Source of the DNA: Blastocatellia bacterium
GTDB lineage: Bacteria; Acidobacteriota; Blastocatellia; Chloracidobacteriales; Chloracidobacteriaceae
Length of the DNA: 64,000 bases
Direction: 5' to 3'
NCBI GenBank assembly: GCA_019695185.1
Contig: JAIBAN010000015.1
Span: 1 to 64,000 of the forward strand
In this document: positions 48,182-52,114 of the stretch, in pieces
Numbering within the stretch: position 1 is the first letter of the stretch
How the letters are laid out: each line of letters opens with the position of its first letter
Notes under the pieces: generated by a model
Seen by the model: only the letters and a program-made list of their open reading frames with translations
What the model was told of the DNA's origin: nothing
Databases searched by the model: none
Made by a program: the position numbers and the translations under genes

Positions 48182-49165
48182 TTACTTGCCGGGTTTTGTT
48201 TCCGGATTTTTTCCCCACTTGGCGTCCCGCATCGGTTTGATGCGTTTTTCCCAGGTTGCAACCACATACTTGTGATACTCGTCGAGGGTGGCGGGCAATT
48301 CCTTGTTTTGTTGTTGTTCAAGCAACAGGTCAATTTCCTGGGTGAAATAATTGAAACTGCGGATGGGCTGTTTGGCGGTGTTGCCTCTCAGTTTTTTCTC
48401 TATGGTGCTGATGAAAGCGATTTCGATAATGCGCAGGTCGGTCCCGTTGTACTTGACGCCTTCGCGGTCGTCCCGGCGTGTCCACGCCTGTCCGGCGTAA
48501 CGCTGGTAGCGCATGATGATATCATCATGTGTATTAAATATCATCATGTCATCATGTGCTACATTTGTAGCCACCAGACCTTTGAAGGTTTGACCCAATG
48601 TGGCTACATTTGTAGCCGCCAGTTCAATAATGTGTGTAGCCACCACGTCCCAGAATTCCTGCTGAGTCATGTGCAAGGTAATACATAATTCCTTTATTTT
48701 CTGGGATTTTGCCGAATCAAGCCGAATATTGAACTGTTCTTTTCCTTCATATTTATGACGGTCTTTGCTACGAGGTTGCTTGTAGCCACCGGTTGAATGT
48801 TGTTTGTAGCCACCACTTTGAGGTGTGGCTACGTTTGTAGCCACCACCGGGGAACTGGTGGCTACATTTGTAGCCACCACTGGGTTTGTGTAGCCACCAC
48901 TTTGGGGTCTTGGAACCCGTTTCAAAGGGGTGTCCACCTGGGAGGGAAGAGGGCCTGAACCGGGTTCAACAGGCGGTTCAGGGAACTCCGCTGCAGGATT
49001 TTCCACTTCCTCAGGTTGACGAGCCAATTCCAGTTGCTCTTGTATCAAATACTGGTCCAGAGCCGTCCCGGCAAAATCAAGATTCAACCGGCGAAAGGTG
49101 GAAGGCCGTTTCCCAGGCTTGAAGGGAGTGACTTTACGGTGTGGTTCGGGTGGTTCTTTCGACAC
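48182..49165 (-). CDS. Putative ribbon-helix-helix DNA-binding partner of ParA
   Basis: A 327-residue protein with a GTG start at 49165 preceded by AAGGAG. Its first 32 bases overlap the end of the parA-like gene, so the two are translationally coupled. The N-terminus is basic (EPHRKVTPFKPGKRPSTFRR), as in ParA-stimulating tails. Residues 85-130 and 185-205 are repeats such as VVATNVAT and GGYKQ, encoded by DNA palindromes. Residues about 140-182 (EGKEQFNIRLDSAKSQKIKELCITLHMTQQEFWDVVATHIIEL) fit a ribbon-helix-helix: one strand then two helices. The C-terminal 110 residues are helical and unknown. Position after ParA suggests a centromere-binding adaptor. The RHH call is by eye only. Confidence 0.75.
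   Translation of the reverse strand: MSKEPPEPHRKVTPFKPGKRPSTFRRLNLDFAGTALDQYLIQEQLELARQPEEVENPAAEFPEPPVEPGSGPLPSQVDTPLKRVPRPQSGGYTNPVVATNVATSSPVVATNVATPQSGGYKQHSTGGYKQPRSKDRHKYEGKEQFNIRLDSAKSQKIKELCITLHMTQQEFWDVVATHIIELAATNVATLGQTFKGLVATNVAHDDMMIFNTHDDIIMRYQRYAGQAWTRRDDREGVKYNGTDLRIIEIAFISTIEKKLRGNTAKQPIRSFNYFTQEIDLLLEQQQNKELPATLDEYHKYVVATWEKRIKPMRDAKWGKNPETKPGK
48512..48529. promoter_or_regulatory. 18-bp perfect palindrome inside the RHH gene
   Basis: CATGATGATATCATCATG is a perfect palindrome. Two further ATCATCATG copies follow at about 48540-48556, leading directly into the first GTGGCTAC-type site. It is a candidate protein-binding site overlapping coding sequence. Confidence 0.5.
48556..48645. 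repeat. Centromere-like palindrome cluster 1 (inside RHH gene)
   Basis: Two near-complete palindromes of the form GTGGCTACATTTGTAGCCAC (48556-48575, one base short in the left arm; 48600-48620, one mismatch in the right) and a half-site TGTAGCCACCA at 48635-48645. Confidence 0.7.
48781..48900. repeat. Centromere-like palindrome cluster 2 (inside RHH gene)
   Basis: Two complete palindromes (48825-48845 with GTTTG centre; 48857-48878 with ATTTG centre) and three half-sites TGTAGCCACC (about 48781, 48805 and 48890). Spacing is irregular. Tandem half and full sites within 120 bp resemble iterons bound by plasmid partition or replication proteins. Confidence 0.7.
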
Positions 49166-50123
49166 GTTCCAAAATCTCCTTCCACAACGAACGATAGGCC
49201 AATGCCCCTTTGGAATCAGGGGCGGTCAAATTGATGGGGGCCTTTTGGGCCGGGCTTTCCGTAATCCGCACATTGTCCGGAATGACCGTTTCCAACACCA
49301 TTCCGGGAAAGGTGGCTTTCAGGGTTTCCATGGCCTCTTTGCACACCCGCCGCCGGGCATCAAAGCGGGTGAGGAAAAATCCAAGCAAACTGGGGAAGGG
49401 GCTGCGGTTAATCGCTCTGGCCCGTTGCAATTGCCGCGTTAATTGAGCCGTGCCATCAACGGAAAGGACATCCGCCTGGACCGGACACAGCACAAAATGA
49501 CTTCCCACCTGGGCCATGGATACCAAGGTTCCGAAGGAAGGGTCCGTATCAATGAAGACAAAATCGTAAGGGGATTCATCCCAGGTTTCAAAAAACTCGC
49601 GCAGAGCGGGCACCACTTCCAAGGGGTTGGAACGGTCAATCTGGTCGTTTTGGGGATGGCTGGGGATGCAATCGAAGGTGAACTCCTGGAACCGGACCGG
49701 CTTAATCAATTCCTCAAAAGGAACATCACCTTTCAGCCAGGAGAGCAGTACCGGGGCTTTGGACGTGGAGGCCGGTTTGTCGTCAAAGAGGGAAGTGGTC
49801 GCCGAGGCCTGAGGAGCCGCATCTATCAGAAGGGCTTTGAACCCGTCGTTGGCCGCCTCGGCAGCCAGGGAGATGGCGGAGGTGGTTTTGGCAACCCCGC
49901 CTTTATTATTACTGATGGTGATGACCCGATGGCGGGTGGAAATCAACGGTGGCGCTTTGCGCAGTGCCTCAATCGAGGACCGGTCATAAAGCCGGACCCG
50001 CCCATCGGTCGGGTCCGAGATGGTCAATAATTGGTTTTCCCGCGCAATCTTGCGAAAGGTATCAGGAGAAACCCCTAAAATTTCACAGGCTTCTGATGCA
50101 GTTACAACGTTGTTCTCAGGCAT
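49134..50123 (-). CDS. ParA-family ATPase with N-terminal HTH domain
   Basis: A 329-residue protein. Residues 5-55 form a MerR/excisionase-like helix-turn-helix (VTASEACEILGVSPDTFRKIARENQLL ... VRLYDRSSIEAL). Residues 65-325 form a ParA/MinD ATPase: deviant Walker A NNKGGVAKTT at 72-81, DAAPQAS (the usual D-x-x-PQ), and YDFVFIDTDPSFGTL as Walker B region. An N-terminal HTH is the layout of type Ia plasmid ParA proteins, which repress their own operon and move DNA by ATP-driven binding to the nucleoid. The longer frame to 50246 is not favoured. ATG 50123 has no good ribosome binding site. It forms a two-gene unit with the RHH gene; together they look like a plasmid-type partition cassette on what otherwise appears chromosomal. 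Confidence 0.9.
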   Translation of the reverse strand: MPENNVVTASEACEILGVSPDTFRKIARENQLLTISDPTDGRVRLYDRSSIEALRKAPPLISTRHRVITISNNKGGVAKTTSAISLAAEAANDGFKALLIDAAPQASATTSLFDDKPASTSKAPVLLSWLKGDVPFEELIKPVRFQEFTFDCIPSHPQNDQIDRSNPLEVVPALREFFETWDESPYDFVFIDTDPSFGTLVSMAQVGSHFVLCPVQADVLSVDGTAQLTRQLQRARAINRSPFPSLLGFFLTRFDARRRVCKEAMETLKATFPGMVLETVIPDNVRITESPAQKAPINLTAPDSKGALAYRSLWKEILERVERTTRTTP

Positions 50124-50175
50124 ATTAGTGCGGATTAGTGCGAGTGGGTTAGGTATAACTCGGCATAGATTATGC
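50124..50175. promoter_or_regulatory. Candidate operator region upstream of parA
   Basis: Two 10-bp direct repeats (ATTAGTGCGG at 50124-50133, ATTAGTGCGA at 50134-50143) touch the start codon. A dyad GCATA-GAT-TATGC lies at 50163-50175. These fit self-regulation by the ParA HTH, which is an inference. Confidence 0.4.
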
Positions 50176-50227
50176 GAAATGGTCGGATTTGTCGAAGCAT
50201 TTTTAGGTATGTTTGGGAAGAAATGAC

Positions 50228-50242
50228 TGGTTTTCAAAACCA
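50228..50242. promoter_or_regulatory. Perfect dyad TGGTTTT-C-AAAACCA
   Basis: A 7-bp inverted repeat around one base, between the parA promoter region and the terminator of the upstream gene. A possible operator; no other support. Confidence 0.3.
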
Positions 50243-50273
50243 ACAAACACCCTTGTGAGCATGTTCAATCCAG

Positions 50274-50328: not shown

Positions 50329-51795
50329 TCAGAAATAGTGTCCCAGTGATTGTTCCAACAGTTCAATCCGTTTATCAAAGGGAAGGCGGACCAGTTTGTC
50401 CAACACCTCGGCTTCCCCAAGTTCGGAAAGCAGAACCGTGACTTCCCACATGATTTCCTGGCGGCGGCGGCGGCTTTCGGTTTTGGCTGGGGCTTTGGAA
50501 GGGTCAATCCATTCATTGGAGGCAGCTTCCAGAAAGGTTTCCTGTTCAGACCGCAGGGAGTCCAGATGGCCCTTGAGCATTGATACCCGAACTTCCCGTG
50601 CTTCTTTTTCATCCATCCGGTGGCGGGGTTCGGTGGCATACAGGCGAAACCGGTCCACTATGCGTTCCGCAACTGACAAGGGCAATCCAGCAGCGGCGGC
50701 CATGTCGGTGGGTCTGGCTGTGACATAGGCTGAAAGGGTAATCACCCCGGCTGCAAACAGGCGGCGGATGGCGGGTCGCCCAACGTTCACCTGTTTGAGC
50801 AGGGAACTGATGATGATGGATTCCGGCGTATTGAAATCATCCGGAATCAAAAAGACCTTGGGCAAATAGTTTTCCAGGGTCAGATAGGATTCATGGATTT
50901 CGTCCCGCAGGATTTCATCCGTGTCGGGATTGTCCCCATAGGAAAGTTCGGCTTTGCGTAAAACCGTTTCAAAGGCTTCCATGTGGGTGGCCAGGTTTCC
51001 AATCCCGATTCCCAACGCTGCGGTGCGCACCGATTTACAGGCTGCCAGGCAGGGTTCAATCCAGTCTTTTCCGCCCCGCCCAAGCCGGACCTGGGCGACA
51101 AATTCACGCAAGGGGCGCACAAAAGCAGTAGCGATTTCAGAGAACAGCTCACGCACCGTTTCGTCGTCGGCTTCGGTCTGGCCGGTGGGGACTTCGCCGG
51201 TGGAGGGTTCTCCGGCCCAGACCTCATTGCCTGTGTCCCCAAACCCTTCCAGAAATGAGCCAATTTCATCCTCGCCCAAAGCCAGAAGGTCAAATGGGTC
51301 ATCGTGGGGCAGGCTTTCACGGGGAGGTGTAGCAGAATCAACTGGTGCCAGAGCCGTTTCCGTGCGGGAAGGAACCTCCATCACCTTGCGCAACAGCTTG
51401 ATGGTGGGGATCGCCTGCGAAGGAACGATGCCATGCTGGAAACCCTGGGCACGGGCAGCCAACCCTCGAAAAATCGGAGGGGCTTCACTTAACGTGACCC
51501 GCAGCCTTTCATAGAAATCACCATCCATTTCTCCCAACCGCCAACCGGCGACCCGCACCAATTCACCCAAATCAATCATCATGGCGACAGCCATTTCATC
51601 GTAAATCGGCATCGGGTGGGATTTTAATTTGAGGCCAAATTGCTCGGCAGCATAGGCAATGGCGTCGGTGTGTTCCGCCACCTGCTCAAAATAGGAATCA
51701 GCCAGGGGGGATTTGACTGCGACGCGCTCCAGGCAATGTGATAACAGGACCGAACTGTCATCAATAGCAGCCACAAATTCGCCAATGGTGTTCAT
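50329..51795 (-). CDS. Unknown protein with HPt-like helical and helix-hairpin-helix-like segments
   Basis: A 488-residue cytosolic protein starting MNTIGEFVAAIDDSSVLLSHCLERVA. The N-terminal 150 residues are helical with a conserved acidic face. A low-complexity linker (residues about 150-205) follows. Residues about 230-315 (RELFSEIATAFVRPLREFVAQVRLG ... IGNLATHMEAFETVLRKAEL) resemble a histidine phosphotransfer bundle, with His271 near the usual place but without the full HxxKGxS motif. Residues about 333-387 (LLKQVNVGRPAIRRLFAAGVITLSAYVTARPTDMAAAAGLPLSVAERIVDRFRLY) read as helix-hairpin-helix motifs. Role unknown; its own strong terminator separates it from parA, so it is probably independent. 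Confidence 0.8.
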   Translation of the reverse strand: MNTIGEFVAAIDDSSVLLSHCLERVAVKSPLADSYFEQVAEHTDAIAYAAEQFGLKLKSHPMPIYDEMAVAMMIDLGELVRVAGWRLGEMDGDFYERLRVTLSEAPPIFRGLAARAQGFQHGIVPSQAIPTIKLLRKVMEVPSRTETALAPVDSATPPRESLPHDDPFDLLALGEDEIGSFLEGFGDTGNEVWAGEPSTGEVPTGQTEADDETVRELFSEIATAFVRPLREFVAQVRLGRGGKDWIEPCLAACKSVRTAALGIGIGNLATHMEAFETVLRKAELSYGDNPDTDEILRDEIHESYLTLENYLPKVFLIPDDFNTPESIIISSLLKQVNVGRPAIRRLFAAGVITLSAYVTARPTDMAAAAGLPLSVAERIVDRFRLYATEPRHRMDEKEAREVRVSMLKGHLDSLRSEQETFLEAASNEWIDPSKAPAKTESRRRRQEIMWEVTVLLSELGEAEVLDKLVRLPFDKRIELLEQSLGHYF

Positions 51796-52114
51796 GTAAA
51801 AACCGATGTTGTCATTCTGCTGGAGAAAGCCAGAATGGAACACCGCTCCTTTCGAGAAAATGAAGTGGACAGGGTAGCACGACGCACGCCTGCCGAGGGA
51901 CATTTTTCAAGCTTGTGAGTATCGGGTTTGTCTTGAAAAAAGGGCCAAACTGAAAGGGATTTGCCGCCAGACCGCAACGGACCGGACCGAAGGTGGGGTC
52001 CTGCTGGGTGGCACGGGGAATTATCAACAAAAGAGGGGCAACTGGCTACCCCAAAAGCCCTTGGAGCCAAGGGGAAATAGCATTTTTCGCAGGCTTTTTC
52101 TGAAGTTTTGTTGT
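51796..52114. other. 319-bp spacer, nothing recognised
   Basis: This lies upstream of the 488-aa gene and downstream of the DUF1223 gene, both on the minus strand. Open frames here have no domain, and no hairpin or repeat stands out. It should contain the promoter of the 488-aa gene. Confidence 0.4.

What the first reader, a model, noticed from the sequence alone, without database searches (positions are those of the whole stretch)
48556..48900. Centromere-like palindromes embedded in the coding sequence of a ParA-linked RHH gene
Four palindromes of the form GTGGCTACATTTGTAGCCAC and at least four half-sites (TGTAGCCACC) lie inside the gene that follows and overlaps a ParA-type ATPase. They force the protein to contain VATNVAT and GGYKQ repeats. 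Partition centromeres usually flank the par operon; an array inside the open frame of the presumed centromere-binding protein is unusual. This could be an undescribed compact partition cassette, in which the gene body doubles as its own parS. The role is inference; the sites and gene order are seen.
Basis: partly seen in the sequence, partly recalled or inferred. Interest (0 to 1): 0.78.

Follow-up and report, generated by a model that had tools for sequence, protein, structure and literature searches.

The report
DNA-sorting genes containing private address sites
In this soil-type bacterium at least 13 separate two-gene DNA-partition-like cassettes each carry their own unique short DNA address, repeated 4-12 times inside the gene for the protein that most likely reads that address, so one stretch of DNA appears to be both gene and docking site.

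Summary
GTGGCTACA half-sites (9 exact; 3 good palindromes and 1 degraded one) lie inside the gene overlapping parA. The palindrome occurs nowhere else in the 8.33 Mb genome. The genome holds 12 more full paralogues of this gene. Every one carries its own, different 8-10 bp half-site, repeated inside its own ORF and absent from the rest of its locus and from the other paralogues. The sites occur in several reading frames and on both strands. Synonymous recoding destroys them in 19 of 20 genes tested. Spacing follows an 11-bp period. Site similarity follows the RHH domain (Mantel p=0.0002) but not the ATPase, N-terminus or C-domain. Two sister loci keep about 90% identical flanks and C-domain while ATPase, array and RHH are swapped. 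Sixteen HTH-type ParB genes in the same genome have no array.

Best reading: in-gene centromere arrays, each read by its own RHH domain. In the Selenomonas plasmid pSRC7 the repeats in the downstream gene also occur upstream of parA. Main rival: replication-origin iterons inside an initiator gene (as in lambda O and pSK41), supported by a weak DnaD-like resemblance and O-like relatives. Binding is untested. New variant of a known kind.

The parts
49134..50123 (-). ParA-type Walker ATPase with an N-terminal HTH; ORF open from 50246, likely start ATG 50123
   Evidence: Pfam AAA_31 E 3e-27, HTH_17 E 2e-5; PHROG ParA-like partition protein E 8e-53; 62-74% identical to ParAs of other Blastocatellia that are followed by wHTH partners
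48182..49165 (-). Array-bearing gene, 327 aa: N-terminal peptide, disordered linker (array 1), RHH domain, array 2, C-terminal helical domain
   Evidence: GTG start shared with L041/L042
49031..49165 (-). N-terminal peptide, presumed ATPase-contact segment; its type co-varies with the partner ATPase
   Evidence: window type shared only with cassettes having the same ParA type; GSFAxL-like N-terminus in cassettes with AAA_22 ATPase
48781..48897 (.). Array 1: exact half-sites 48781-48789, 48805-48813, 48836-48844, 48858-48866, 48869-48877, 48889-48897, plus one-mismatch site 48825-48833
48825..48844 (.). Palindrome GTGGCTACGTTTGTAGCCAC
48858..48877 (.). Perfect palindrome GTGGCTACATTTGTAGCCAC
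48608..48739 (-). RHH domain (EQFNIRLD strand, helices aa 151-163 and 168-185)
48566..48643 (.). Array 2 at the end of RHH helix 2 and the following linker: exact half-sites 48566-48574, 48600-48608, 48635-48643; palindrome 48600-48619
48555..48574 (.). Degraded palindrome TGTGCTACATTTGTAGCCAC
   Evidence: 3 mismatches
48185..48556 (-). C-terminal five-helix domain, 49-74% identical in the nearest 16 paralogues (30-43% in the two most distant); insignificant but top-ranked DnaD-like structural resemblance
48512..48529 (.). CATGATGATATCATCATG palindrome encoding HDDIIM at the start of the C-domain, perfect in three cassettes and near-perfect in others; not cassette-specific

Best explanation
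The array is a centromere-like set of binding sites for the RHH domain encoded by the same gene. The ATPase upstream (ParA here) contacts the N-terminal peptide of the RHH protein. RHH dimers coat the in-gene half-sites, arranged as palindromes about 33 bp apart and in register with the helix, and form a partition complex that moves or tethers this DNA. The linker coding region tolerates the sites because it is disordered. Each cassette in the genome uses private letters so that cassettes do not cross-talk, as in plasmid incompatibility. Shown by sequence: private arrays, DNA-level constraint, co-variation with the RHH domain, module swap. Inferred: binding, ATPase stimulation, segregation function.
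For: All 13 full family members in the genome, found by protein similarity and not by arrays, have a private array confined to the ORF, and the motif-by-ORF table is diagonal within the genome. Synonymous shuffles never reach the observed counts in 19 of 20 genes, and ATPase genes show none. 11-bp phasing R=0.33 against a null maximum of 0.15. Site similarity tracks the RHH domain (rho 0.46, p 0.0002) and the 8-aa strand (p 0.0004), not N-terminus, C-domain or ATPase. L034/L038: same site, 68% RHH identity, ATPases 31% identical. RHH about 25% identical against a conserved C-domain. C88/C56 swap of ATPase+array+RHH between flanks and C-domain at roughly 90%. pSRC7: TGTACA 5 times in the gene and 6 times upstream of parA, with separate rep and repeats. 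In L079 (62% related ParA) the partner gene lacks an array but repeats (CCCCCGTA x6) lie just downstream. No array in 16 HTH-ParB genes of the same genome.
Against: No binding or segregation data. The window and several other cassettes sit among chromosomal-looking genes (dapA/dapB beside L038), so there may be no plasmid to partition. The C-domain resembles DnaD weakly and is shared with O-like wHTH relatives, pointing to replication. Four cassettes use an AAA_22 ATPase instead of ParA. ParA here has an N-terminal HTH, unlike small type Ib ParAs. In-gene repeat excess in pSRC7 is modest after synonymous shuffling (53 of 2000).
Confidence: 0.6

Rival explanations
1. The array is a replication origin (iterons) inside the gene of its initiator: RHH or wHTH domain binds the iterons, the DnaD-like C-domain recruits the replicative helicase, and ParA/AAA is a linked maintenance gene. 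The cassette would be a whole mini-replicon (perhaps with the centromere role combined).
For: Known precedents: lambda ori lies within the O gene (PMC5043065); pSK41 Rep boxes lie in the rep linker between an N-terminal DNA-binding domain and a conserved C-terminal domain (PMC5703833). L042 partner matches phage replication O-like families (PHROG E 1e-9; Pfam E 1e-5). C-domain Foldseek top hit DnaD-like 2zc2, another DnaD in the list. C-domain similarity links RHH and wHTH types. RHH-coding segment mildly AT-rich (60% against 48% of the loci). CyRepA1-like rep genes were found only on other contigs than the RHH cassettes.
Against: Foldseek hits not significant (E>3). No consistent AT-rich unwinding element. 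In pSRC7 the in-gene array is distinct from the repeats beside a separate rep gene. Directly downstream of parA with an N-terminus that follows ATPase type, as expected of a partition partner.
Confidence: 0.27
2. The sites are operators: the RHH protein represses its own operon or neighbours.
For: RHH proteins are often autorepressors (established knowledge); sites lie within the operon.
Against: No copies upstream of the ATPase genes; best upstream PWM score at most 0.45 of maximum against 0.90-1.00 in the gene. Typically 7-12 sites spread over 180-490 bp far from the promoter is poor operator design.
Confidence: 0.05
3. Protein-level repeats: the amino-acid repeats matter and the DNA repeats are a by-product.
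For: Repeats fall in a disordered linker, where low-complexity peptides expand easily.
Against: Same DNA word read in several frames and on both strands, giving different peptides; synonymous shuffles lose it in 19 of 20 genes; each paralogue has different peptides; helical phasing.
Confidence: 0.02
4. The cassettes are selfish or domesticated chromosomal modules (insulation, locus positioning, or exclusion of incoming replicons that share a site) rather than maintenance of their own replicon; the in-gene array still is the protein's target.
For: 13 solitary two-gene cassettes with unrelated, often chromosomal-looking neighbours; same locus beside the 524-aa gene in G003 holds a different ATPase and site; orphan ParI on a genomic island destabilises IncP-7 plasmids (PMC9178275).
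Against: The organism has many partition loci (16 ParB genes) and at least seven CyRepA1-like rep copies, so many may be true plasmids or chromids; draft contigs prevent assignment to replicons.
Confidence: 0.06

Closest known systems
Type I RHH-ParB partition systems (pSM19035 delta/omega, TP228 ParFG)
   Same: ParA-type ATPase, RHH-type partner, array of short repeats in mixed orientation, specificity pairs
   Different: pSM19035 parS repeats overlap promoter regions (PMC9499535); here all sites lie inside the partner gene; extra conserved C-domain; half-sites about 11-24 bp apart rather than contiguous heptads; ParA has an N-terminal HTH
pSK41 RepA_N initiator and phage lambda O
   Same: Binding sites inside the coding DNA of the DNA-binding protein's linker; conserved C-terminal domain; private site/protein pairs
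   Different: Those are replication initiators that are not the overlapping partner of an upstream ParA gene; DNA-binding domains differ (RepA_N or O wHTH against RHH); replication not shown here
Selenomonas ruminantium plasmid pSRC7 parA and downstream gene (NC_017077.1)
   Same: RHH-like gene after parA with an in-gene TGTACA array at multiples of 9 bp
   Different: Same repeats also upstream of parA; 164-aa protein without the C-domain; separate rep gene
Bacillus subtilis spo0J with a parS inside the gene (recalled, not checked here)
   Same: A centromere site inside the gene for its binding protein
   Different: One of several sites, HTH-ParB with spreading; not a private in-gene array

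Membership tests
Type I RHH partition system (ParA + RHH CBP + repeat centromere) | Walker-type ParA ATPase | tested here: met
   Pfam AAA_31 E 3e-27, PHROG ParA-like E 8e-53
Type I RHH partition system (ParA + RHH CBP + repeat centromere) | Small ParA without N-terminal HTH | tested here: not met
   HTH_17 match at residues 48-95 (E 2e-5); several paralogous cassettes do have small ParAs
Type I RHH partition system (ParA + RHH CBP + repeat centromere) | RHH DNA-binding domain in the partner | tested here: inconclusive
   Pattern and AF2 helices fit; profile hits weak (Arc-like E 0.011 for L040, 2kel E 0.042); no Pfam match
Type I RHH partition system (ParA + RHH CBP + repeat centromere) | Array of short repeats linked to the operon | tested here: met
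   9 exact half-sites here, private arrays in all paralogues
Type I RHH partition system (ParA + RHH CBP + repeat centromere) | Partner binds the array and stimulates ParA; array and genes stabilise a replicon | not testable with these tools
   Only indirect: RHH-site co-variation
HTH-ParB ParABS | ParB_N domain in the partner | tested here: not met
   No Pfam match in the partner; the 16 ParB_N genes of the genome are other loci
Initiator with origin inside its gene (lambda O, pSK41 Rep) | Iteron-like sites in the linker-coding DNA of the DNA-binding protein | tested here: met
Initiator with origin inside its gene (lambda O, pSK41 Rep) | Recognisable initiator domain | tested here: inconclusive
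   None in the window protein; O-like wHTH in relative L042; C-domain DnaD-like hits not significant
Initiator with origin inside its gene (lambda O, pSK41 Rep) | Drives autonomous replication | not testable with these tools
   needs experiment

The most novel reading that the evidence does not exclude
A family of self-addressed cassettes of about 2 kb in which one gene body is at once coding sequence and the only site (centromere, possibly also origin) of its own product, with at least 13 mutually insulated specificities evolved inside one genome by swapping the ATPase-array-RHH module while keeping the C-domain.
Probability: 0.4. Interest if true: 0.85.

Novelty: new variant of a known kind. 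Interest (0 to 1): 0.76.

Why it matters
It gives a natural panel of about 20 protein-site pairs with conserved geometry and different letters, so the RHH recognition code and the evolution of centromere specificity (incompatibility) can be tested directly. It also shows that the same DNA can be constrained both as gene and as centromere or origin, and that searches for centromeres should look inside the partner gene: several sequenced plasmids in the small control set show in-gene repeats too.

Tried and rejected
Pfam, NCBIfam and PHROGs gave no family for the window partner. Whole-model Foldseek was uninformative; the C-domain alone gave only insignificant DnaD-like hits. The plasmid (tblastn) and viral collections hold no relative of the partner; a sequence word search of papers gave chance hits. 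tRNA search to place the contig on a chromosome found none. AT-content search for an unwinding element was not decisive. Within-genome distinctness of sites compared with between-genome sharing (0 of 78 pairs against 3 of 65, my count from the table) is suggestive only. Papers on centromeres inside partner genes: none found in the held library, which lacks most subscription journals. One synonymous-shuffle test (L032) was not significant with 9-mers (71 of 500) because its site is a shorter self-overlapping palindrome.

Full report
WHAT IS THERE. The half-site GTGGCTACA occurs nine times exactly between 48566 and 48897 (0.21 expected in the whole window), forming three good palindromes and one degraded one. 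All lie in the minus-strand ORF 48182-49165, which overlaps a ParA gene (49134-50246). In the 8.33 Mb draft genome the palindrome occurs nowhere else, and 9 of 26 half-site copies are here. The organism belongs to the acidobacterial class Blastocatellia, because the same-order genome G013 has a contig matching JAHFUF01, a Blastocatellia MAG.

A FAMILY WITH PRIVATE ARRAYS. Searching by protein similarity gave 13 full copies in this genome, three in the related genome G003 and single copies elsewhere in the class. A sample of 396 genomes of the phylum added none outside the class. Each copy sits behind an ATPase gene. Each has its own half-site, 4-12 copies inside the ORF (15 with the short 7-bp word in L034), mostly in both orientations; the table of motifs against ORFs is diagonal within the genome, and with one exception no copy lies elsewhere in a locus of 6-20 kb. 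Some sites recur between genomes: GACGTC-type in L034 and L038, TGTATAGC in L036 and L039, GTGGACGGC in L026 and L040. The copies were not chosen for arrays, so 13 of 13 is not a selection effect.

DNA-LEVEL CONSTRAINT. The same word is read in several frames and strands. Shuffling synonymous codons while keeping the protein, and counting the commonest 9-mer of any kind, never reaches the observed count in 500 trials for 19 of 20 genes; the exception is L032. ATPase genes used as controls have at most 2-3. Distances between sites have an 11-bp period (R 0.33, null maximum 0.15). A core of two palindromes about 33 bp apart recurs in cassettes with different letters.

ANATOMY. AF2 predicts residues 48-142 disordered, then RHH-like helices, then a folded helical C-domain (C-domain alone pLDDT 90). 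Sites fall in the linker before the RHH and in a second cluster at its end. RHH segments are 18-29% identical to the window's, C-domains 30-74%. Upstream ATPases are ParA in most cassettes but AAA_22 type in L027, L029, L037 and L040, and the N-terminal peptide changes with ATPase type. The window's ParA type is otherwise followed by wHTH partners, also with in-gene arrays flanking the wHTH (L077, L078, L080); a further ParA-linked wHTH-type gene in this genome (L110) has TACGGAACA 11 times.

WHO READS THE SITES. Site similarity correlates with RHH similarity (rho 0.46, p 0.0002) and with the 8-aa strand (rho 0.37, p 0.0004), but not with N-terminus, C-domain or ATPase. L034 and L038 share site and RHH while their ATPases are 31% identical. 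In contigs C88 and C56 the flanks and C-domain are mostly 87-99% identical by 100-bp window, while ATPase, array and RHH are about 45-60%: the specificity module was exchanged as a unit. In G003 the locus beside the 71%-identical 524-aa neighbour gene carries a different ATPase and a different site.

CENTROMERE OR ORIGIN. For centromere: position behind parA; the plasmid pSRC7, where TGTACA occurs five times in the downstream RHH-like gene and six times upstream of parA, with a separate rep gene and repeats; and L079, where the related partner has no array but repeats lie just downstream. For origin: lambda O and pSK41 Rep precedents, O-like wHTH in L042, weak DnaD-like resemblance of the C-domain, mild AT-richness of the RHH segment. 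Sites are absent upstream of the ATPase genes, which argues against simple operators. I favour centromere at 0.6, origin or combined at 0.27.

CONTROLS. Sixteen HTH-ParB genes in the genome have no array (commonest 9-mer 2-3). Of 19 plasmid partner genes sampled, most have none; pSRC7, two cyanobacterial RHH-like genes (L157, L161) and two ParB genes (L155, L163) do show in-gene repeats, and four others have repeats upstream of parA. These plasmid cases, apart from pSRC7, were not tested by shuffling. So in-gene arrays are not unique to this class, but I found no paper describing them for partition partners (limited library).

LIMITS. Draft genome; replicon assignment unknown; RHH assignment weak at profile level; binding and function untested.

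Noticed in passing
G000 contigs C111, C222, C121, C6, C12, C65, C27, C48, C83, C60, C28, C214, C45, C199, C117, C172: The genome has 16 ParB_N loci (G003 has 11; other family members 2-3), an unusual number of partition systems.
   Followed up: partly
G000 contigs C214, C28, C45, C48, C90, C107, C117: Seven copies of a CyRepA1-like plasmid replication helicase (name by recall) at 90% identity or more; at least five sit on contigs that also carry a ParB gene, and these ParB genes differ: same replication gene, different partition genes.
   Followed up: partly
L110:1046-2539: Another ParA-linked gene, wHTH-type with no RHH, with TACGGAACA 11 times inside, directly beside a ParAB pair.
   Followed up: partly
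window 48512-48529 and start of the C-domain in paralogues: Palindrome CATGATGATATCATCATG or variants (GAAGATATCTTC in L035, GGATGATATTATCATCC in L036) at the start of the C-domain, kept in some paralogues through paired changes; not cassette-specific.
   Followed up: no
L039 (G003:C43): An array cassette lies about 3 kb from a ParAB pair on the same contig; C199 and C121 of G000 likewise carry both kinds.
   Followed up: no
NC_017077.1:908-967 (L154): Selenomonas plasmid pSRC7 has TGTACA at multiples of 9 bp inside the gene after parA and six more copies upstream of parA.
   Followed up: yes
L155:925-2034 and L163:3256-4368: Two plasmid ParB genes carry in-gene repeats (CCTCACGAA x6; CCCATAACG x6).
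   Followed up: no
window 50329-51903: 524-aa gene upstream of the cassette with no Pfam family; 71% orthologue beside a cassette in G003, 31-38% paralogues in every family member.
   Followed up: partly
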